64,000 nt of DNA from Methanooceanicella nereidis (GTDB lineage Archaea > Halobacteriota > Methanocellia > Methanocellales > Methanocellaceae): assembly GCF_021023085.1 (NCBI RefSeq), contig NZ_PGCK01000001.1, positions 124,001-188,000 on the forward strand, given 5' to 3'. Below, piece by piece: positions 1,159 through 27,446 of the stretch. Position 1 is the first letter of the stretch, and each line of letters starts with the position of its first letter. Both the position numbers and the translations under genes were made by a program. The notes beneath the pieces were generated by a model. The model saw only the letters and a program-made list of their open reading frames with translations. It was not told where the DNA came from and made no database searches.

Positions 1159-1195
1159 GAAAAAACCAATTAAATTTATTTTAATTGGTTTTTTC
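1159..1195. terminator. perfect 16-bp stem-loop, bidirectional terminator
   Basis: Arms 1159-1174 and 1180-1195 pair perfectly around a 5-nt loop, with A-tracts on the left and T-tracts on the right, so it can end transcription on both strands. The stop codon of the OLD nuclease gene lies inside the right arm. Confidence 0.8.
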
Positions 1196-3214
1196 TGCAA
1201 ATACATTGTTTACTTCATTAAAGATATTAGAAAAATTCTTAAATGTTTCTTCCGATAGTGTATTCTTTTCATCGTTAATTCGGTTAATTACCAATCTTGC
1301 AATATACCATTTTTCAAATTTATCATATCCCAATCTTTCAAAGGCTTTAGATAATCTCTTCGTAATATTTTTAATTTTCTTTTCATCCTCAGTAAAAGAT
1401 ATATCGAATTTATAGTGCTCTTTTACTAGATCCATATAGAAATCTTCTGGGAACAAATCCTCTAATTCTGCTTCGGAATTATCAATGGAATCGCCTACAA
1501 ATAGACATCTTCTACCGTTACCAGTAAATAATCGATCTTGGAATTCCTTTCCCTTACTACGACCTGCTTTATCACCATCTAAAAGTGCCATTATTTTAAT
1601 ACCATGCCCCATCAACATTGAAGCTAATGGAATTAAAATGCTAGTACCGCCCGCAGGGATTATAATTATATCATCAAATAAATGAGTAAGACCTTTTTCT
1701 TTTAATTTTTCATTAATTGACCAAAGAATTGTATAATCTGTTATACCCTCCACAATTAATTGCTTTTCAGAATAGAACAATGTTTGTGCTATTGAATAGC
1801 CAAGTGCAGCTTGTAAAGGAAATAGAGCGTCTTTATCTTTTGGCCATACATCTTCCGAAACTTTTGTTGTACCATCATCTGATTCATAAACAACTCTTAC
1901 TCGTTCGAGATGCTTACCATCGATCATAAATGGAGAATGTGTAGAGTACAATGTTTGATTATTTTCAGATAACTTTTCAAAAAAATTTACTAATTTACCC
2001 TGTGCAGAACCATGCATATATAAACCAGGTTCATCTAATAACAATATTGCGTTTTGATGCGCTCCAGAAGCCTCTACTAAAAATATTGTATAGAACGAAA
2101 AGAAATATTGAAGTCCTCTACTTCTTTGATCTAATTCGATTTCACTGGGGTCGAAATCGTCGGATACCCATATTCTAAAAAATTGCCCATCAAGTTGATA
2201 CCTAAATTTATGCCGTCTCTGTTCCCACCAATCAGAAAACATATCAGTCATTGTAGCTGATGCAGAAGACATTTGAACAGCGCGCTCATCAGCCATTTTT
2301 CTTAATATGCTTTGTTGTTTTTCTATGGAACTGGGGTCCAATTTCGCAATTTCATTTAAATTTATTCCTACTTGATCAAAAAGACATTTATTTGAACGGA
2401 TACGGGCATTATTTGGATCATCCCGTATTGTATTTATCAAAGAAGGTATATGAATAGCACTATCTATTGCGTTATAGCTATCAAAATAAATAAATTTGGG
2501 GATGTTATTTTCAACCCATTGTTTAGCATTATCTACCTGTGATTGAACATCAATTAAATTTTTAAAGTCCCTTAATTTTATTATTATATGATAAAAAATA
2601 TCTTTTTGCCATTGTTCATTAATAATACTTGATATCTTAGTTATTAAATCATTGATTTCTTGTTGACTAACGTTGACATCTAATTTTTGTTTAGATAAAT
2701 TGATTTGTTGATTTATGAAATTTATAATTTTTTCTTTTATTGTTTTAAATTGATCTCCCTTACCATCTGGTGCAACTAAATCTTGAACCTCATTCAATAT
2801 TTTTGTTAGTATATCTAATAATACAGAATTTTTAATATTAGGCAATATGGGAGTTGGTACAAATTCAATGTCCATATTCCATGAATAATATCTAGTGCAT
2901 ATTATATACTCTAAATTTTTTAATAGAGGCAAACTTTTACTTAATTCGCTTTTTTCTGAATCTAATAAAACAAATTTTACACTTGATACTGGCCAATCTT
3001 GTTTTTTAAATTCACTAGTATACATTTTTCTTGGAAATTCTTTTAATCCATCATACTTTTCACCATCAGAGGGATTTAATTTTGACAAACCTCGAAAAAG
3101 AGCGGATTTTCCAGCCTCATTTTTTCCTACAAATGCAGTTAAATTTTCACATGATATCCAGTCTGTATCCCGAATTTTCTTATAATTTTGCACCCTAAAC
3201 CCAATCATCTTCAT
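1181..3214 (-). CDS. OLD-family ATPase with TOPRIM nuclease domain
   Basis: The 677-residue protein joins an SMC/ABC-type ATPase to a TOPRIM nuclease, the layout of OLD (overcoming lysogenization defect) nucleases. Visible parts are the Walker A GKNEAGKS at residues 30-37, a long helical middle region, Walker B LLLDEP near 390-396 and an H-loop STHSP near 424. The TOPRIM domain starts at LIVEGITD (catalytic Glu 489) and continues to the metal-binding pair in LLDGDKAG (D546 and D548). Such proteins protect against phage or foreign DNA. No UvrD-type helicase lies next to it, so it fits the stand-alone class 1 OLD group better than a Gabija GajA. The gene is A+T-rich compared with the rest of the window, which suggests transfer. 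Start ATG at 3214; an ATG at 3208 (MIGFRV) is equally possible. Confidence 0.88.
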   Translation of the reverse strand: MKMIGFRVQNYKKIRDTDWISCENLTAFVGKNEAGKSALFRGLSKLNPSDGEKYDGLKEFPRKMYTSEFKKQDWPVSSVKFVLLDSEKSELSKSLPLLKNLEYIICTRYYSWNMDIEFVPTPILPNIKNSVLLDILTKILNEVQDLVAPDGKGDQFKTIKEKIINFINQQINLSKQKLDVNVSQQEINDLITKISSIINEQWQKDIFYHIIIKLRDFKNLIDVQSQVDNAKQWVENNIPKFIYFDSYNAIDSAIHIPSLINTIRDDPNNARIRSNKCLFDQVGINLNEIAKLDPSSIEKQQSILRKMADERAVQMSSASATMTDMFSDWWEQRRHKFRYQLDGQFFRIWVSDDFDPSEIELDQRSRGLQYFFSFYTIFLVEASGAHQNAILLLDEPGLYMHGSAQGKLVNFFEKLSENNQTLYSTHSPFMIDGKHLERVRVVYESDDGTTKVSEDVWPKDKDALFPLQAALGYSIAQTLFYSEKQLIVEGITDYTILWSINEKLKEKGLTHLFDDIIIIPAGGTSILIPLASMLMGHGIKIMALLDGDKAGRSKGKEFQDRLFTGNGRRCLFVGDSIDNSEAELEDLFPEDFYMDLVKEHYKFDISFTEDEKKIKNITKRLSKAFERLGYDKFEKWYIARLVINRINDEKNTLSEETFKNFSNIFNEVNNVFAEKTN

Positions 3215-12954: not shown

Positions 12955-13914
12955 ATGAGAACCTTCCCGCGTCCCCGTGTCGTCGTCAGCGCCTGCCTTG
13001 AGTTCGAGCACGTCCGCTATGACGGGCAGATGATACCATGCAGGACAGTCAGAGAACTGATGGATTTTGTCGATTTTATCAAGGTATGCCCGGAATACGA
13101 GATAGGGCTGGGCGTACCCAGGGAGCCGATCCGGATAGTAAGATCCGGCGACGAATACAGGCTTATCCAGCCTAAGACCGAAAGAGACGTCACGAAAGAG
13201 ATGGACGAGTTCACGGACAATTTTATGGCCTCGCTACCGGATGTAGACGGTTTCATCTTCAAGTCAAAATCCCCGACCATCGGCCTGAAAAACATCAAGG
13301 TCTACAGGGGCGCCCATGACCCCAACGTCGTCGAAAGAAGAAGCGGCTTCTTTGCGCAGAAGATCCTGGATAGATATCACGGCTATCCGATAGAGGAAGA
13401 CCAGAGGCTGAATAACAATAAGATAAAGCACAACTTCCTCACGGCGCTTTACGCCTTTGCGGATTTTAGGCAGGTAAGAGAATCAGGCTCTATGGAGGCG
13501 CTTCATGATTTCCATAACAGGAACAGGTATCTTTTCATGGCTTATAGCCCGGCGCTTTACATGAAAATGAATGGGGCTTTTAAAGATGAGAAGCCGATCG
13601 AAAAGTATTTTGAGCTCCTTCGAGAGCTTTTTGCGGACATGCCTTCACATGTCGAGTACATAGACGTCGCCAGCACGATATTCAACAGGTACGATACGAG
13701 AGCTACGGATAAGGAAAAAAGCTGGTTCTATGAAGCTATGGAAAAATATGAAAAGAACAAGATAAGCCTGAACGGGCTGCTTGAAAGCCTGTTATTGTTC
13801 GCGGAAAAATTCGACGATGTGGAGATATTGAAGCAGACGCTGTTCGAGCCGTATCCGCTGGAGCTAATGCCGGACGTAGATACGGAAAGAGACAGGGAAT
13901 ATGCTATAATGTAG
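12955..13914 (+). CDS. DUF523 (TudS-like) + DUF1722 fusion protein
   Basis: The 319-residue protein joins two domains. The N-terminal DUF523 part (1 to about 150) has the conserved cysteines C14 (in VVSACLEF), C29 and C45 (in KVCPE) and the motif GVPREP. DUF523 is the fold of TudS, a desulfurase that uses a [4Fe-4S] cluster bound by three Cys to remove sulfur from thiouracil. The C-terminal DUF1722 part (about 165-290) begins KIKHNFLTALYAFADFRQ and is of unknown role. The same fusion occurs in the YbgA family. A role in thiolated pyrimidine or sulfur metabolism is therefore plausible but not shown. The gene is monocistronic and close to the preceding surface-protein gene. Confidence 0.85.
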   Translation: MRTFPRPRVVVSACLEFEHVRYDGQMIPCRTVRELMDFVDFIKVCPEYEIGLGVPREPIRIVRSGDEYRLIQPKTERDVTKEMDEFTDNFMASLPDVDGFIFKSKSPTIGLKNIKVYRGAHDPNVVERRSGFFAQKILDRYHGYPIEEDQRLNNNKIKHNFLTALYAFADFRQVRESGSMEALHDFHNRNRYLFMAYSPALYMKMNGAFKDEKPIEKYFELLRELFADMPSHVEYIDVASTIFNRYDTRATDKEKSWFYEAMEKYEKNKISLNGLLESLLLFAEKFDDVEILKQTLFEPYPLELMPDVDTERDREYAIM

Positions 13915-14052: not shown

Positions 14053-15543
14053 TTACCCATGTGTCGTCAAGAACTTCTTCCCATCTTCCTTGCACATTAT
14101 CTCTACAGCTCCGCGAGCGGTCATAGCCGCCGTCGGCACGCCTCCTCCGACCATCGTCCACATTCCGCACATATAGAAATTTTTCAACCCCGGAAGCCTT
14201 GAGCCGAGTATCTTCCTCTGGCCGCTGTTCATCCACCCCATGTAAGATCCCTGCCAGTTCCCCGTATATCTTTCATATGTCGTAGGCGATGCGACATCTA
14301 TAGCCTCGATCTGCTGCCTGACGCCGGGATAATGCTTTTCAAGCTCCGAGATAACAAGCTCTGCGACATTCTCTTTCTCCGCCTCGTATTTAGCGCGATC
14401 TCCGCCTAGCTTCTTCCAGTAAGCATGGTCGGCAGTTATGAATGAAGCCACTACAGACTTTCCTTTAGGCGCTATCGTAGGGTCTTTACAATAATGTTTG
14501 AATAATAGCTTATCGACAGGTACGCCTGTGATATTAACGGTCCCGTCAAGCTTGAAAACCTGCGAGTGTGGCTCATCCGAAAAGTCCCTTGCGATGCCCA
14601 GCGACACCTGCATGCCCGAAGGGAATAGCGGATACGAATCGTAAAAAGTCTTTAGTTTCTCTGTAAGATACTTGCCTTCAAGCATATCGTACAAAGTCTC
14701 ATGGCCGTCGCAAGCGGATATCACGACATCGGCCCTGTGCTCGGTCCCGTCTTCCATCCTGACGCCGACAGCGGCGCCATTCTCGACGATGATATTCCGG
14801 ACTTTAGACCTGTAGCTGACCTTTCCGCCCAGGTCTTTATACCTCTTCTCTATCGCTTTGGAGAACTCTAAAGACCCGCCTTCCGGAAAGCCCTGCCATC
14901 CGTTATCGAACCATGCCTGAGTTATAAGGAAAGCCGTGAAAGGAAAGCCCGGGAAATCGAAAATATCGTTGAACGCCTCCCTCAGGAACGGATCGGTGAA
15001 CTTTTCCGAGAATTGCATGTGCGTCATCTTCGAATACTTATTCATCGCGCCCATCACAGGCCACATAGAAATGATCATTTTTAGGATGTCCATCTTGGTG
15101 TAAAGCTCGCCCGGCTTCAAGGTCGGGATCTCCATCCTTTTGAATTTTTTTAGAGCGGCGATAAGCTCATTTATCGTTTTGGAGTCCGCGGGAGATAGCT
15201 CCTTCATATGCTTTTCCAGCCGGTCGATATTATTGTAGACGATGAACCTCTTACCGCCTTTACCGACTATCTGCATGAAATCTTCGTCGTAGATTATCCT
15301 TCTATTCTGGATAGCTCCCAGTTCCCGCCACATATCGTAGAACTTCGGGCCCCCGGTAGTGCCGACGAGCCAGTGCAGGCATCCGTCGAATACATAGCCC
15401 TTTCTCTTCCAGGATGTGCAAAGTCCTCCGGGTATGTTGTGCATCTCGAAAATATGAGTGTCGTAGCCATTCATTCTTGCATAGCAGCCCGCAGACAGGC
15501 CGGCGATCCCGCCGCCGATGATGATGACCGATTTACGCGTTAT
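14053..15543 (-). CDS. phytoene desaturase/carotenoid isomerase-like FAD oxidoreductase
   Basis: The protein belongs to the CrtI / retinol-saturase-like group of two-domain FAD oxidoreductases, about 500 residues long. The first ATG (15474) would remove the FAD-binding Rossmann turn, but the same frame continues upstream and encodes KSVIIIGGGIAGLSAGCYAR, exactly the expected N-terminus. The frame is open back to an in-frame TGA and holds no ATG, GTG or TTG. The codon in the expected place is ATA at 15541-15543 (reading ATA ACG CGT AAA), five bases after a GGGGGA sequence. Other landmarks are the second FAD loop at IPGGLC and a C-terminal GxxTVGGGVPTAAMTA-like segment. Substrate unknown. It could be a pseudogene with a lost start, or a gene with a rare start codon; the body is intact. 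Confidence 0.8.
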   Translation of the reverse strand: MTRKSVIIIGGGIAGLSAGCYARMNGYDTHIFEMHNIPGGLCTSWKRKGYVFDGCLHWLVGTTGGPKFYDMWRELGAIQNRRIIYDEDFMQIVGKGGKRFIVYNNIDRLEKHMKELSPADSKTINELIAALKKFKRMEIPTLKPGELYTKMDILKMIISMWPVMGAMNKYSKMTHMQFSEKFTDPFLREAFNDIFDFPGFPFTAFLITQAWFDNGWQGFPEGGSLEFSKAIEKRYKDLGGKVSYRSKVRNIIVENGAAVGVRMEDGTEHRADVVISACDGHETLYDMLEGKYLTEKLKTFYDSYPLFPSGMQVSLGIARDFSDEPHSQVFKLDGTVNITGVPVDKLLFKHYCKDPTIAPKGKSVVASFITADHAYWKKLGGDRAKYEAEKENVAELVISELEKHYPGVRQQIEAIDVASPTTYERYTGNWQGSYMGWMNSGQRKILGSRLPGLKNFYMCGMWTMVGGGVPTAAMTARGAVEIMCKEDGKKFLTTHG

Positions 15544-16328: not shown

Positions 16329-18089
16329 TCATAATATGTTTTCATCTTTTGTCGCGCTGAAATATATCTTGGTCGTTGGCGTGATCTTCTTGCTGCTGGT
16401 CCTGATCAGGTTATCTTCCTTTAGCTCGTAGATCGCATTGACGATCTCTTTTTTAGTGATCTCCGGGTGATTCTTCTTAAACTCATTTTCCAGTATCCGG
16501 AACATCTTCCAGTTTTTATAATCGCGCAACAGGATCTGTTTGATATGCTCCGTCCTATCGCCGTTATTATCTATCACGTCAAAGTCATCCGTATCTTCAT
16601 TGATGTCGTCCATATATATGGTGTTCTGGAACTCTATCAGGTCGATAGAGTAGTTTTCCAGAGGGTGATGGACGATGCCCGCCTTCTTCAACATGTCCCT
16701 GGCATTGTCGGTCACGCTCGGTGAGATGAAAATGGCCGTATCGGAACTATCGTCAAATGCGCCCGCTTCCCTTAAGTTATTGATCCGGCCGATGAACCTG
16801 TTCGCCTTCTCCGGGTTCGCCTCGCTCATAGTGAACTCCGCATACGCACGCCTGACAGGCGTTCCATTGTTTAGCAGCTCTCCGTACCCGTCAAACTCTT
16901 GCCCGTGTATGACGGCCTTTCTGCCGCATTTAAACTCCGGGTCGTTCCGCTTTATGACCTTTTCAAATTCATTGAACGCTATCTTCTCATATTCATCGGA
17001 AATGTTCGAAATGAGGTCAAAGTTGATGTCGTAATAGTCCAGGTACCTGTTTATGTAGTACTTTGTAAAGTTGCCCGGCGTGGTCTTGTTATTTACGCTC
17101 GTCCGTATCTCTTTTATCAGGTCGACGAATTCCTCTTCCGGGAGCTGTTTGATCTTCAGGCGGTTGCCGAACAGCGGCCTTATTATCTTATTAAGGATGT
17201 TATCCGCCAGTATCCTGAGCTCGACGTCGTTGAACTCCTTCATCATGATCTCGTGAGTGTCCGCGACCCTCTGGAAGTTCTGGCAGTTAAGGCGGATATA
17301 CTCGTACATCTCTTTCTCGCTGGTGAAAGCGACGTATATCGGGCGGGCGTCGATGCCCGGATCGGTCAGGTCGCGTAAAAAGGCGTAAGTGAACACATCG
17401 ATAGTCGACGGGTGTGTCTCCCTGTTCGACCTTACGAACATCTCGACTTCGTCGAATAAAAGCACAAGAAGCCTGTTGCTCTTTTTGAACAGTTCCATCA
17501 GGAAGTCCTTCGCGCCGTTTATCTGGAAATAGTAATGGTCATGGGAGTCGGTCTGTATCTCGCCGATCAGTTTCTGGAACGCCTCTTCCCTGACGCGCTC
17601 GTCGATAGATGCCAGGTCCCTCAGTATACAGGGATTTATGTATGACAGGTAAAAATTCTTGCCGAGGTCATTCAAGATCTCGGATAAGTACGGCTTCAGC
17701 TCTATGAAGATCTGCCTGAACACGTATTTTTTCAGGTTAGCCTCGTCTATCCCGGTATATGAGCTCATGTTTATTTTGATCACGATAGCTCTGCTGCCGT
17801 ATTCCTTTCTCGCGATGTTCTCGATCTGTATCAGTAAAGTGCTCTTGCCTCCGCCGTAAGAGCTTATTATAGGCCTTAGCTGCGGGGACTTGTTCCGGTA
17901 AACGTAATTGAGGTCGGATTTGATCAGGTCGGAAAACTTACCGTTCTTCAGATAGCTGTAATGCATGTTCTTTATCACTACGTTCTCGGAGGACAGCTGC
18001 CTGTCCACCAGTATCTCGGAGATATCCGGCGGTATAAGGCCTCTGCCAAGCAGCATTATATCCTGAAGGTAAGCGTTCGAGCCCGACAT
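16329..18089 (-). CDS. P-loop ATPase with Mrr-like domain and C-terminal winged helix
   Basis: The 586-residue protein has three parts. Residues 35-350 are an AAA+-like ATPase: Walker A SYGGGKST (77-84), Walker B VLLFDEVEMF (209-218), and a sensor-like strand YVAFTS (252-257); it recalls BREX-type and ORC/Cdc6-type ATPases. Residues about 375-485 look like a PD-(D/E)xK fold of the Mrr type: GQEFDGYGEL, then RRAYAEFTMS and IFISPSVTDNARDMLKKAGI. The Asp and Glu of a nuclease site are visible, but the usual Lys after the Glu is absent, so activity is doubtful. Residues 525-580 form a winged helix. It starts four bases after a winged-helix gene (18094-18750), and the pair forms an operon. I do not know a named system with this layout. 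Confidence 0.75.
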   Translation of the reverse strand: MSGSNAYLQDIMLLGRGLIPPDISEILVDRQLSSENVVIKNMHYSYLKNGKFSDLIKSDLNYVYRNKSPQLRPIISSYGGGKSTLLIQIENIARKEYGSRAIVIKINMSSYTGIDEANLKKYVFRQIFIELKPYLSEILNDLGKNFYLSYINPCILRDLASIDERVREEAFQKLIGEIQTDSHDHYYFQINGAKDFLMELFKKSNRLLVLLFDEVEMFVRSNRETHPSTIDVFTYAFLRDLTDPGIDARPIYVAFTSEKEMYEYIRLNCQNFQRVADTHEIMMKEFNDVELRILADNILNKIIRPLFGNRLKIKQLPEEEFVDLIKEIRTSVNNKTTPGNFTKYYINRYLDYYDINFDLISNISDEYEKIAFNEFEKVIKRNDPEFKCGRKAVIHGQEFDGYGELLNNGTPVRRAYAEFTMSEANPEKANRFIGRINNLREAGAFDDSSDTAIFISPSVTDNARDMLKKAGIVHHPLENYSIDLIEFQNTIYMDDINEDTDDFDVIDNNGDRTEHIKQILLRDYKNWKMFRILENEFKKNHPEITKKEIVNAIYELKEDNLIRTSSKKITPTTKIYFSATKDENIL

Positions 18090-18093
18090 ATTA

Positions 18094-18750
18094 TCATTCC
18101 TTTATCTCTATCCAGGTCTTTTCTCTTCCCTGGGACAACACGATCATGCCGATCTTCGACCTGATCAGCGATTGAAGCATCTCGTCATACTCATAGTCCT
18201 GATACCTGTAGCGTTCCATGATTATCTTTTTCAGCTCCTGGTGCCAGACTGATCCGTCGCCCAAAAAGTCTCTCTCTTTAAGCTTTTTATATTCTTCCTT
18301 AAGTGCGGCTTCAAACATCATAAGGTCACTGTTCGGCTTATTGGGTATGCTCTTTACTTCGATCGTTCTGCCCGGCGATGTGTTTAAAATGGCGAATAGC
18401 TCATCGAGCTTTTTCTCGATGATATCAAGTCTCTGTAGTATGAGATCGTTCCCTGCAGCCTTTTTTGGTTTTGGCGCCTTAGATGCTCTTGAAGATAGTT
18501 TGGTTAGCAGTTCATTTCTGTTATTGGTATAATATTCTTTACCGTTCTCTGTGATCTTATAAAATGTAGCCCTGCCTTCTTTTGACTCCGAGATGAGCCC
18601 CAGGTCCAGAAGTTTTTTCAGGTGTTTATCTTTATTTTTTATTGTTAGACCGGACTTCTTAATGCCGTTAACGTCATCCTTGTTATCGAATATCTTATTC
18701 AATATGCTGATCTCTTCAATGACAAGATCGAAGTTTTTGTCGAAAGCCAT
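18094..18750 (-). CDS. winged-helix protein with coiled coil, partner of the ATPase
   Basis: The 218-residue protein has an N-terminal winged helix (about residues 5-75: helix, recognition region KHLKKLLDLGLISES and wing GRATFYKITENGKEYY), a basic linker, a short coiled coil (ILQRLDIIEKKLDELFAIL, about 103-121) and a C-terminal helical domain (about 140-210) that may be a second degenerate winged helix. It is transcribed first, four bases before the ATPase gene, so the proteins are likely to work together, perhaps as DNA-binding subunit and motor. Start: ATG at 18750, because the longer TTG-started frame (18759) has no ribosome-binding site. I recognise no family name. Confidence 0.72.
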   Translation of the reverse strand: MAFDKNFDLVIEEISILNKIFDNKDDVNGIKKSGLTIKNKDKHLKKLLDLGLISESKEGRATFYKITENGKEYYTNNRNELLTKLSSRASKAPKPKKAAGNDLILQRLDIIEKKLDELFAILNTSPGRTIEVKSIPNKPNSDLMMFEAALKEEYKKLKERDFLGDGSVWHQELKKIIMERYRYQDYEYDEMLQSLIRSKIGMIVLSQGREKTWIEIKE

Positions 18751-18914: not shown

Positions 18915-19559
18915 TTGAAACAGTCTGACCGCATCACCTTACACGAATATTATGATAGTAAGCTGAAAACATATGGCTACGACACGCGAAGCCTGGGCTG
19001 GATCCCCGGCGCGAGAAATGTAAGGTTAGGGGCCCTGACATCAATAGGCGACCTTGATAATTCTTCAGTCCTCGACGTCGGATGCGGCTTTGGCGACCTT
19101 TACGGGTACATGGTCAAGAAAGGTATGACGGTCAGTTATACGGGCGTGGATATTAATCCGGATTTTATTGAGATAGCAAAACAGGTCTATCCCGATGCAC
19201 GGTTCATGGCCGCGGATTTTGAAGAGGAGGACATCGGCGGGAATTTTGACTGGATATTCGCCGCGGGAATATTCACCATTAAGATATCGGATAACGAGGC
19301 GTTCATCAGGAACATGCTTAAAAAGATGTTCGACGTATGCGATAAGGGATTTGCCGCTGATTTCTTAAGCCCCATCGGATATGGTACAGAAGATAAATAC
19401 TGGAGATGCGAGCCGGAGAGTATATTAGCGTTCTGCAGGAAGCTTTCCAGAAGAGTCACGCTAAGATGCGATTATATGGCCGGCGAGTTTTGCGTTTATG
19501 TGTACAAGAACGATATTACCGATGAGAGGAATGTGTTCGAGGGATATGACGAAAGGTAG
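18915..19559 (+). CDS. class I SAM-dependent methyltransferase (family A, copy 1)
   Basis: The 214-residue protein has the Rossmann-type methyltransferase motif I SVLDVGCGFGDLYGYM at about 50-65 and motif II with the acidic end YTGVDINPDF at about 74-83. These features bind S-adenosylmethionine. The N-terminus (YYDSKLKTYGYDTRSLGW) is characteristic and is shared almost exactly with the gene at 24515, a clear paralogue. The substrate is unknown; small-molecule methylation is the usual role of such short proteins. The start is TTG at 18915, about seven bases after GGTG; the paralogue also has TTG-AAA at this place, which supports the choice. Confidence 0.87.
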   Translation: MKQSDRITLHEYYDSKLKTYGYDTRSLGWIPGARNVRLGALTSIGDLDNSSVLDVGCGFGDLYGYMVKKGMTVSYTGVDINPDFIEIAKQVYPDARFMAADFEEEDIGGNFDWIFAAGIFTIKISDNEAFIRNMLKKMFDVCDKGFAADFLSPIGYGTEDKYWRCEPESILAFCRKLSRRVTLRCDYMAGEFCVYVYKNDITDERNVFEGYDER

Positions 19560-20499: not shown

Positions 20500-21363
20500 A
20501 TGACATCGGAGGGTATTGGAAGAAATAATAGATTACTTGACTTTTGGGGATCAGTCGGTATTACCAAGCATGTAGGGGGGATAGCCGCAACTAAACAGTT
20601 AGCGGGATTATGCGGTATCGGCCCCAGCCAGCTCGTTCTGGACATAGGCTGCGGTACCGGTTACACGGCATGCTTTCTGGCTAAAGAGTATGACGTAAAG
20701 GTCATCGCCATAGATATTAATCCTAAGATCTTAAGGCATGCAAAAAAGCGGATCGAGCGGGAGAACGTGAGCGATAAAGTGATAACCATTAATGCTGACG
20801 CCAACAACCTGCCGTTCCCGGATAACATGTTCGATGCCGCCATCTCCGAATCGGTCCTGACGTTCTGCGATAAGAAGAGAGCTCCTTCGGAGATATACCG
20901 GGTCCTGAAGCCTGACGGGTATTTCGGAGGCAATGAGGGAGTATACTTAAAGCCGCCTCCGCATAGAATATCACACCGGATGGATACGGAGTTCAGCATT
21001 CAGATGCTTGACGAGATGGAATGGCATGAGGTCTTCGAGAGTGCCGGGTTCGCTTATCAGTTTTCCAGAGTGTTCGACAAGAACCTCATAGAGGATATCG
21101 GCGGGCTTCTCAAAATATATGGCGTAGGAAAATTCTGCTCTGCTTTCATGAAAACGATCCTTAACCCGTCCGCAAGGAAAATGTTCTCTGACCGGGACGC
21201 GCTCAAGATAGGTATGATGAATTCAACCTCCCTGGGCTACGGTCTATACGTATACAGGAAATTGAATAGTTCCGGCTTATTTAGCAGGCCTGCTGCGCCT
21301 ATGGCAGTATTAGAGGCAAAGCCATTATTCAGGACGAAGACAGGGCAGAGGAAAGCGCTTTAA
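20500..21363 (+). CDS. class I SAM-dependent methyltransferase (family B, copy 1)
   Basis: The 287-residue protein has SAM-binding motif I VLDIGCGTGYTACFLA at about 47-62, the acidic motif II VIAIDINPK (about 69-77), and an aromatic-rich C-terminal part with LGYGLYVYRK. The lead segment GITKHVGGIAATKQLAGLCG is shared with the paralogue at 26673. The overall layout resembles UbiE/sterol-type small-molecule methyltransferases. A C-terminal tail of about 35 residues (from SSGLFSRP) is missing in the paralogue and may be disordered. The ATG at 20500 lies ten bases after TGAGGT; an ATG at 20493 is in another frame. The giant-palindrome repeat begins less than 100 bases after its stop codon. Confidence 0.87.
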   Translation: MTSEGIGRNNRLLDFWGSVGITKHVGGIAATKQLAGLCGIGPSQLVLDIGCGTGYTACFLAKEYDVKVIAIDINPKILRHAKKRIERENVSDKVITINADANNLPFPDNMFDAAISESVLTFCDKKRAPSEIYRVLKPDGYFGGNEGVYLKPPPHRISHRMDTEFSIQMLDEMEWHEVFESAGFAYQFSRVFDKNLIEDIGGLLKIYGVGKFCSAFMKTILNPSARKMFSDRDALKIGMMNSTSLGYGLYVYRKLNSSGLFSRPAAPMAVLEAKPLFRTKTGQRKAL

Positions 21364-21449
21364 GGGCGCTGGATACGCGTTCTTTTTTTATAATAGATAA
21401 ACTGTGGCGGTATTACTGGATCATACTGTATATGATGACTAACGCAAAA

Positions 21450-22221
21450 GATGAAGTTTTTATGGTTATGCCTGTCGGATGGAAGGTAGACACATAACCT
21501 CACAGAAACACAGAACCACAAAAATTTTTTTATATGATTTTTTAAGGGCTCAAAAGCACTAAGAATTTACTCACCAAACCACAAATGCTCTAGTATCACC
21601 GTCAACGCACTAACACCTCTAACGCCCGGCTCAACGCTCAAAAAACATGAAGTCACCAACGCTAAAACAAGACCCGAACATTCTCCAAGGCACTAAATAT
21701 TAATATCCCGGTTTGTGTTCGCCTGACCTATAACAGATATAATAGTCTTTTAAACGTCAACCGTGCAGTTAAGATTTCGTGTTTTTGGAGAATGTTCGGG
21801 TCTTGTTTTAGAGTTGGTGACTTAGAGAGGTTAGTGCGTTGAGCCGGGCGTTAGAGGTGTTAGTGCGTTGACGGTGATACTAGAGCATTTGTGATTTAGT
21901 GAGTGAATTTTTGAGATTTCGTGACCTTAAATTCTAAAAAAAAAAAAATTGTGGTTCTGTGTTTCTGTGAGGTTATGTGTCTACCTGCCATCCGACAGGC
22001 ACAACGACAGAACATCAATCCCCTGATGGAAGTTATATGCACGTCCTTACAGAGACCATCAAGAAGTTTTTCATGGGAGGACACAAAGGCGAACAAGGTA
22101 CACCAGTTTCCACCACAAAGCGCACAAAGGAACACAAGTGTACACAAAGGACTTTTTAGAAGATTTCATATTTTTAAAAAAATTAGTGTACCTTACTCGC
22201 CTTCGTGGGCTTAGTGGTTAA
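21450..22221. repeat. giant-palindrome repeat element, copy 1
   Basis: Positions 21469-22001 form a long imperfect palindrome of about 530 bp: the left arm starts TGCCTGTCGGATGG and the right arm ends with its complement CCATCCGACAGGCA. Inner paired words include CCTCACAGAAACACAGAACC, AACGCCCGGCTCAACGC and ACAAGACCCGAACATTCTCC. The centre (about 21690-21785) is unpaired and contains TGTTCGCCTGACCTATA. A side module (22002-22221) has smaller inverted ACCACAAAG words and continues to GGGCTTAGTGGTTA. The same sequence, in reverse orientation and with scattered changes, is at 51479-52251. Frames inside (e.g. 21921-22214) are not protein-like. Confidence 0.92.
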
Positions 22222-24213: not shown

Positions 24214-24514
24214 ACTATCGTATTAAAACACTTATAATTTGTATTATATATACCTGTTGAATACAAGTACTAATATCAATATTCGGAAATAAATATTGCC
24301 AGTAGAAAATTATCGGGATACGTAGAGGCGGTAAAATTTATTGATATGGTTTTTAAGATAGAATTACTTTGTGAACTACACAACGATAAAAAGATCGGGA
24401 CCTGACTCCATTATGATGCCCATAAAAATACATTAATATTACAGGTTCTGCCAGAATATCAGAGAATATATTTTATCATTATGTCATTCTGTATACCTTA
24501 CTCAGGGGATGATA

Positions 24515-25114
24515 TTGAAACTCTATGACAGGGCTACACTGTCCGGTTTTTATAATGAGCATCTGGACATGTTCGGATATGATGAGAGAAGCCTTGGGTG
24601 GATAGAGGGAACCCAGGAAGCGAGGTTTGAAGCCCTGACAGCCATAGCCGACCTGAATGATAGCTCTGTACTGGACGTAGGATGCGGTTTCGGAGACCTT
24701 TACGGATATCTTCTTAAAAAAGGGATAAAGGTGAACTATACGGGTGTCGACATAAACCCCGGCTTTATCAGGATAGCAGAGAGCTTGCACCCGGATGCCT
24801 GTTTTATAATATGCGACTTTGAGGATGAGCCCATAGAAGGCGATTTTGACTGGGCGTTCGAATCGGGGATGTTCAACCTGAAAATTTCCGACAACGACGC
24901 ATTCATAAAAAACTCATTGAGAAAGATGTACCGCCTGTGCAACAAAGGCCTAGCAGCCGATTTCCTTAATCTTAGCGCCTACAACATATTCGGACATATG
25001 CATCTTCAAGACCCAGTCAGGCTGTATGATTTTTGTAGGACGCTATCAGGAAACGTAAGGATCAGGCAGGATTATAAGCCGACTGAGTTTTGCGTTTACA
25101 TCTATAAAGACTGA
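24515..25114 (+). CDS. class I SAM-dependent methyltransferase (family A, copy 2)
   Basis: The 199-residue protein matches the gene at 18915 over its whole length: FYNEHLDMFGYDERSLGW near the start, motif I SVLDVGCGFGDLYGYL, motif II YTGVDINPGF, and a conserved end EFCVYIYKD. All SAM-binding positions are kept, so it should be active; the substrate is unknown. TTG at 24515 aligns with the TTG start of the paralogue and follows AGGGGATGAT; an ATG at 24509 in the same frame is the alternative. The C-terminus is about 14 residues shorter than in copy 1. It converges on the subtilase gene with a small hairpin between them. Confidence 0.87.
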   Translation: MKLYDRATLSGFYNEHLDMFGYDERSLGWIEGTQEARFEALTAIADLNDSSVLDVGCGFGDLYGYLLKKGIKVNYTGVDINPGFIRIAESLHPDACFIICDFEDEPIEGDFDWAFESGMFNLKISDNDAFIKNSLRKMYRLCNKGLAADFLNLSAYNIFGHMHLQDPVRLYDFCRTLSGNVRIRQDYKPTEFCVYIYKD

Positions 25115-26672: not shown

Positions 26673-27446
26673 TTGAGGATGTTTTTAGCCGGCATCAATG
26701 AAAAAATAATAGATCCTTGCAGGATATGGGAACTCACGGGCATCACCAAACATCTGGGCGGTATAGGCGCTACAAAACGCCTTGCGGAGCTATGTGATAT
26801 TAAGCCGGGGCAGCGTGTGCTGGAGATAGGATGCGGCACAGGATATACGTCCTGCATGCTGGCAAAAAAATATCAGGCTAACATAGTCGCCATTGACATC
26901 AGCTCAAAGCTATTATGCCTTGCTAAAAAAAGGGCTGTTCGTGAGAACGTGGACGATAGAGTGATCTTTATTAATGCCGACGCCCGGACTTTGCCTCTGA
27001 AGGACTGCTCTTTCGACGTGGCTATAGCTGAATCGGTACTGACGCTCTGTGATAAAGAAAAAGTCCCGTCTGAGATATATCGTGTCTTGAAAGAGAACGG
27101 CCATTTTGGCCAGAATGAAGCGCTATACCTGAAACCTCCTTCCGGGGATCTTTCCGGCATAATTGATTCGTTCGGCATCCGTATCCTGAATGAGAGTGAG
27201 TGGAAAGAGATATTCAAAAACGCCGGATTTACATGCCAGTTTTCAAAAGTAAATGAGATCGACCTGCTGGAAGACTTTAAAAGTATCATCAAAGAATATG
27301 GTATCATAAAATATTTTTATGCAATTGTTAAAAGTTTTTTAGACCCCGAGATAGGGAGATTATTTTTCAATAAGAGATACCTGAACATCAGCATCAAGAA
27401 TCTTTCTTCTTTTGGCTACGGGCTTTTTGTTTACAAAAAAACATAA
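26673..27446 (+). CDS. class I SAM-dependent methyltransferase (family B, copy 2)
   Basis: The 257-residue protein is a paralogue of the gene at 20500. Shared landmarks are GITKHLGGIGATKRLAELCD, motif I VLEIGCGTGYTSCMLA, motif II VAIDISSK, the segment SVLTLCDKEKVPSEIYRVLK and the end FGYGLFVYKK. It lacks the C-terminal tail of copy 1. All SAM-binding features are intact; the substrate is unknown. Start: TTG at 26673, or ATG two codons later (26679); neither has a clear ribosome-binding site. It converges on the PAS-GAF gene. Confidence 0.86.
   Translation: MRMFLAGINEKIIDPCRIWELTGITKHLGGIGATKRLAELCDIKPGQRVLEIGCGTGYTSCMLAKKYQANIVAIDISSKLLCLAKKRAVRENVDDRVIFINADARTLPLKDCSFDVAIAESVLTLCDKEKVPSEIYRVLKENGHFGQNEALYLKPPSGDLSGIIDSFGIRILNESEWKEIFKNAGFTCQFSKVNEIDLLEDFKSIIKEYGIIKYFYAIVKSFLDPEIGRLFFNKRYLNISIKNLSSFGYGLFVYKKT

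What the first reader, a model, noticed from the sequence alone, without database searches (positions are those of the whole stretch)
16329..18750. Unnamed two-gene system: winged-helix protein + ATPase with Mrr-like domain and C-terminal winged helix
Seen: the genes are four bases apart. The ATPase has Walker A SYGGGKST and Walker B FDEVEMF, then a segment with GQEFDGYGEL, AYAEFTMS and IFISPSVTDNARDMLKKAGI, which fits a PD-(D/E)xK (Mrr) fold lacking the usual Lys, then a winged helix. The partner has a winged helix, coiled coil and helical C-terminus. I know no named system with this order. It may be a defence, partition or replication-linked ATPase.
Basis: partly seen in the sequence, partly recalled or inferred. 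Interest (0 to 1): 0.75.

Follow-up and report, generated by a model that had tools for sequence, protein, structure and literature searches.

The report
Orphan winged-helix/AAA+ ATPase gene pair
Two adjacent archaeal genes encode a DNA-binding-type protein and a molecular-motor ATPase distantly like those of the BREX antiviral systems, but no relatives of the pair were found anywhere searched, so its role and the claimed nuclease-like domain remain unproven.

Summary
On the minus strand a 218-aa winged-helix protein (18094-18750) lies 4 bases upstream of a 586-aa ATPase (16329-18089) with intact Walker A and B motifs and a C-terminal winged helix. The pair is single-copy. No relative was found in ~970 other genomes of its phylum, in two scans of ~85,000 species, or in viral, plasmid or phage collections, so conservation of the pair cannot be shown. 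The ATPase resembles the BrxC/BrxD family (PF10923) at Walker A and, separately, from Walker B to the sensor/lid region, but stays below the family's cut-off. In archaeal Dpd-like loci a winged-helix gene also directly precedes a BrxD-like ATPase gene, the same order as here; similarity between the two winged-helix partners is only suggestive. The Mrr nuclease reading is not supported: the segment scores like unrelated proteins, the catalytic Lys is Thr, and the single-sequence fold was unusable. Neighbours are mostly metabolic and signalling genes, and GC3 is the highest of the genes checked, so recent arrival in a defence island is not indicated. Best reading: a lineage-restricted, DNA-bound AAA+ machine of BrxC/BrxD type with a winged-helix partner, possibly defensive. 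Moderate interest.

The parts
18094..18750 (-). Partner protein, 218 aa: N-terminal winged helix (about residues 10-85), short coiled coil (about 98-121), probable second winged helix (about 160-215)
   Evidence: ORF; sub-threshold wHTH model hits; coiled coil read from the sequence; C-terminal segment weakly resembles the C-terminal part of archaeal Dpd-locus partner proteins
16329..18089 (-). ATPase protein, 586 aa
   Evidence: ORF; single copy in the genome
17190..17936 (-). AAA+ core, about residues 52-300: Walker A SSYGGGKST (76-84), Walker B LLFDEVE (210-216), sensor/lid region
   Evidence: Pfam PF10923 E=0.0014, 18.1 bits, below cut-off 22.2; profile match of 54-96 and, separately, 207-299 to the archaeal BrxC/BrxD alignment
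   Evidence: motifs present; Mrr profile not above background; structure models unusable
16349..16556 (-). C-terminal winged helix, about residues 512-580
   Evidence: HxlR model, E=0.0026, below cut-off
18090..18093 (-). 4-base intergenic gap, AAGGA-like ribosome-binding sequence just upstream
   Evidence: sequence

Best explanation
A co-transcribed two-protein DNA-bound AAA+ machine. Inferred mechanism: the partner dimerises through its short coiled coil and binds DNA with one or two winged helices, recruiting the ATPase. The ATPase, of the ORC/Cdc6-like clade and closest in sequence to BrxC/BrxD, assembles on DNA in an ATP-dependent way, helped by its own C-terminal winged helix. The central alpha/beta segment acts as a DNA- or protein-contact module, perhaps a worn-out nuclease fold. 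The likeliest use is interference with foreign DNA, as in other systems that pair BrxC/BrxD-type ATPases with winged-helix proteins. Shown: gene order, motifs, and two collinear BrxC/D-profile segments. Inferred: complex formation, DNA loading, defence role.
For: Walker A region 54-96 and the Walker A-free fragment 201-300 both match the archaeal BrxC/BrxD profile, in the right order. The fragment scores 29.8 against 13.2 +/- 2.4 (max 18.7) for shuffles. It ranks 8th against 783 background segments, and the four top-scoring background segments whose sequences were printed all cover a Walker A motif. The YGxGKS and DExE signature is shared. In Dpd-like loci of other archaea (read in L084-L087; profile hits in 13 genomes, L090-L102) a winged-helix gene sits directly upstream of a BrxD-like ATPase gene, with a TGT gene before it in the two loci annotated with Pfam. 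BrxC is reported to multimerise and bind DNA under ATP control (PMC13326643); recurrent pairing of ORC/Cdc6-type ATPases with fast-evolving wHTH proteins in anti-invader systems is described in PMC12839542.
Against: The Pfam cut-off is not met and there is no PADLOC match. The partner's resemblance to the Dpd-locus partner is at the 1-3% background level, and a profile of that family did not find it. Neighbours are not defence genes. GC3 of the ATPase gene (0.70) is the highest of the 35 genes checked, unlike a recent foreign acquisition. No homologues, so no co-occurrence evidence.
Confidence: 0.4

Rival explanations
1. A lineage-specific housekeeping machine: an Orc/Cdc6-like ATPase with a winged-helix DNA-binding adaptor that serves replication, partition or chromosome organisation in this genus, not defence.
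For: GC3 fits resident genes, neighbours are metabolic and signalling, and the clade includes ORC/Cdc6 (PMC12839542). The partner has weak Sso10a and ScpB winged-helix hits.
Against: Absent from all three family relatives and the rest of the phylum searched; a core process would usually be conserved.
Confidence: 0.25
2. The partner is an ordinary wHTH transcription regulator of the operon and the ATPase acts without it.
For: Its best model matches are transcription regulators (PadR, ArsR, Csa3, HxlR wHTHs).
Against: Possible second C-terminal winged helix and coiled coil; in Dpd-like loci a larger wHTH protein sits in the same place beside a related ATPase.
Confidence: 0.2
3. One reading: residues 375-485 are a PD-(D/E)xK (Mrr-type) domain, either active with a relocated Lys or degenerate, making this an ATP-driven restriction-like enzyme.
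For: D400...E418-x-T420 and FISPSVTDNA can be laid over the Mrr pattern; the low-confidence full-length model shows alpha-beta-beta-beta-alpha-beta-alpha order there.
Against: No Pfam hit; Mrr profile score equal to about 10% of background segments; catalytic Lys replaced by Thr; Foldseek gave no nuclease of this fold among the top matches of a poor model.
Confidence: 0.15

Closest known systems
BrxC/BrxD AAA+ ATPases (Pfam PF10923; BREX, Shango SngB, Dpd-locus ATPases)
   Same: YGxGK[ST] Walker A, [hydrophobic]DExE Walker B with a long insert between them, two collinear profile matches; BrxC also carries alpha+beta and wHTH modules C-terminal to the ATPase (PMC12839542)
   Different: Sub-threshold score; half the length of BrxC; different C-terminal half; no PglZ, PglX or helicase gene among the neighbours annotated
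wHTH + BrxD-like ATPase gene pair of archaeal Dpd-like loci (L084-L087, L090-L102)
   Same: Same gene order, winged-helix gene directly upstream of the ATPase gene; possible wHTH at both ends of the partner
   Different: ATPases end after the lid (about 385 aa); partner is 279-298 aa; linked to TGT/DpdA genes that are absent here; no significant sequence relation
Archaeal ATPase_2 (PF01637) proteins with a DUF234 nuclease-like C-terminus
   Same: Similar parts (ATPase, winged helix, proposed PD-(D/E)xK fold), weak ATPase_2 match E=0.011
   Different: Domain order differs (from my own knowledge of the family) and no DUF234 hit here

Membership tests
BrxC/BrxD (PF10923) | Score over the curated cut-off (22.2 bits) | tested here: not met
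   16.1 bits whole protein, 18.1 bits ATPase part
BrxC/BrxD (PF10923) | Walker A YGxGK[ST] and Walker B DExE | tested here: met
BrxC/BrxD (PF10923) | Similarity beyond the Walker A segment, collinear | tested here: met
   fragment 201-300: 29.8 against shuffles max 18.7
BREX system | Locus with PglZ and a PglX-type methyltransferase | tested here: not met
   neighbours annotated by Pfam; none of these
Mrr / PD-(D/E)xK nuclease (PF04471) | Profile match | tested here: not met
   no hmmscan hit; at background level by hhalign
Mrr / PD-(D/E)xK nuclease (PF04471) | Catalytic D...(E/Q)xK | tested here: not met
   E418-F-T420, Lys absent
Mrr / PD-(D/E)xK nuclease (PF04471) | Restriction-endonuclease fold | tested here: inconclusive
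   single-sequence models, pLDDT 36 and 46
Dpd-locus wHTH partner family | Match to a profile of that family | tested here: not met
   own genome not hit at E<=0.01; hhalign weak
Known defence systems (PADLOC) | Any model match for the ATPase | tested here: not met
   0 families at E<=5
Orc1/Cdc6 replication initiators | Orc1/Cdc6-specific sequence and origin box | not tested
   no Orc1 profile was built; no Pfam Orc1 hit appeared

The most novel reading that the evidence does not exclude
A new minimal two-gene DNA-interference system: a BrxC/BrxD-type AAA+ ATPase fused to an inactivated restriction-endonuclease-like DNA reader and a winged helix, loaded by a dimeric double-winged-helix partner, confined to one methanogen-related lineage.
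Probability: 0.13. Interest if true: 0.65.

Novelty: new variant of a known kind. Interest (0 to 1): 0.35.

Why it matters
If the BrxC/BrxD relation holds, it shows that wHTH + BrxC/BrxD-like ATPase units can occur as a stripped-down pair outside BREX, Shango and Dpd loci, and gives a small system in which the role of that ATPase, debated in BREX, could be tested alone. As it stands it is an orphan with a plausible but unproven assignment.

Tried and rejected
Such pattern scans reach close relatives only. Two structure predictions without an alignment were too poor to use, and the Foldseek run on the second gave no meaningful match. An early hhalign against BrxD and Mrr sets used wrongly oriented loci and was redone. 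Background in the first BrxD comparison contained BrxD proteins and was redone. The partner's hits in other genomes are generic winged helices.

Full report
Observation. The minus strand carries a 586-codon ORF (16329-18089) and, four bases upstream of it, a 218-codon ORF starting at ATG 18750. The junction reads ...ATAAAGGAATGA-TAAT-ATG, so a ribosome-binding sequence overlaps the end of the partner gene and the two are very probably co-translated. A long open frame with family-type motifs is not chance. The window lies in a 3.19-Mb, 41-contig genome whose order has four genomes in the set. From genome sizes I take it to be a Methanocellales relative (inference: the M. paludicola genome is 2.96 Mb, PMC3146512).

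Distribution. The ATPase is single-copy. It has no match in the three family relatives, in a 394-genome phylum sample, or in 186, 59 and 324 genomes of three other groups of the phylum at E <= 0.001 (these overlap the phylum sample, about 970 different genomes in all, at most; estimated). Faint hits were inspected and look like chance. Pattern scans of about 85,000 species and of IMG/VR, and tblastn of plasmids (ATPase and partner) and phages (ATPase only), found nothing; the pattern scans reach only close relatives. The partner hits only generic winged helices elsewhere. At DNA level no match to the pair region is listed for the relatives, while the adjacent methyltransferase gene (18915-19559) and the 2-thiouracil desulfurase gene (12955-13914) do have matches.

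The ATPase. Pfam gives PF10923 (BrxC_BrxD) at E=0.0014 and ATPase_2 at E=0.011 for the ATPase part, both below cut-off. I collected 24 BrxC/BrxD matches from archaea of the phylum, kept those with long frames, and compared profiles with hhalign. The whole protein scores 50.6, against 16.2 +/- 2.6 for full shuffles and 38.5 +/- 1.2 (max 43.1) for shuffles that keep the Walker A stretch. Fragment 201-300, which has no Walker A, scores 29.8 against shuffles of 13.2 +/- 2.4, max 18.7, and aligns from Walker B through the sensor and lid in the right place. Against 783 segments of other archaeal proteins it is beaten by seven; the four best of these were printed and all cover a Walker A motif. A STAND-type ATPase used as a control matches the profile only at Walker A. 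I read this as moderate evidence for the BrxC/BrxD side of the ORC/Cdc6-like clade, not as family membership.

The middle segment. The order of predicted elements at 365-470 in the poor full-length model and the motifs can be laid over Mrr (D400, E418-F-T420, FISPSVTDNA). But a profile from 30 archaeal Mrr domains gives 15.4-15.5, reached by 42-46 of 474 background segments. A relaxed motif hits 1.8% of shuffles and 4 of 211 background proteins. The domain model has pLDDT 46 and no usable fold match. The nuclease fold is possible but not shown; as written, the Lys is missing. An alternative is an alpha+beta module of the kind reported between the winged helices of BrxC (PMC12839542).

The partner. 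N-terminal winged helix (sub-threshold matches to several regulators and to CARF-associated wHTHs), a short coiled coil, and a C-terminus that I read as a second winged helix. While following the BrxD-like ATPases I found that in Dpd-like archaeal loci the gene directly upstream of the BrxD-like ATPase encodes a 279-298-aa protein that begins with what reads as a winged helix, and a profile of it finds 13 members of full or near-full length, with the ATPase gene seen directly downstream in 12 of 13. Our partner aligns to that family at both ends: the C-terminal 78 residues score 21.7 against shuffles of 12.1 +/- 2.1, max 17.1. However, 8 of 500 background segments reach that score, and the profile search did not pick up our gene. 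Same layout, unproven kinship.

Context. Neighbours are a cyclase, an amine-oxidase/phytoene-desaturase-type oxidoreductase, several class I methyltransferases, PAS histidine kinases and a subtilase. The only clear defence-type gene among those checked is an OLD-family ATPase-TOPRIM protein at 1181-3214, about 13 kb away and of much lower GC3 (0.21). The ATPase gene has GC3 0.70, the highest of the 35 genes compared. This argues against a recently acquired defence island.

Verdict. Real, intact, lineage-restricted gene pair; ATPase distantly of BrxC/BrxD type; nuclease domain unproven; function inferred as a DNA-bound AAA+ machine, possibly defensive (confidence 0.4).

Noticed in passing
window 21449-22221: Repeat element with at least 39 further copies (76-90% identity) in this genome; 21458-22012 is a large inverted repeat (arms of 128 and 84 nt) that matches its own reverse complement. 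No Rfam match.
   Followed up: partly
window 1181-3214 (-): OLD-family ATPase-TOPRIM (PADLOC Old, 1e-29) with GC3 0.21, far below the other genes compared: probably acquired defence gene.
   Followed up: partly
L084-L087, L090-L102: Archaeal Dpd-like loci with a TGT/DpdA gene, a 279-298-aa winged-helix-type protein without Pfam or PADLOC match, and a BrxD-like ATPase; the family has 13 members of full or near-full length in the genomes searched.
   Followed up: partly
window 14053-15474 (-): Amine-oxidase/phytoene-desaturase-type oxidoreductase without a strong match in the three family relatives.
   Followed up: no
window 18915-19559, 20500-21363, 24509-25114, 26673-27446: Four separate class I SAM methyltransferase genes within 9 kb, among PAS-type histidine kinases.
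   Followed up: no
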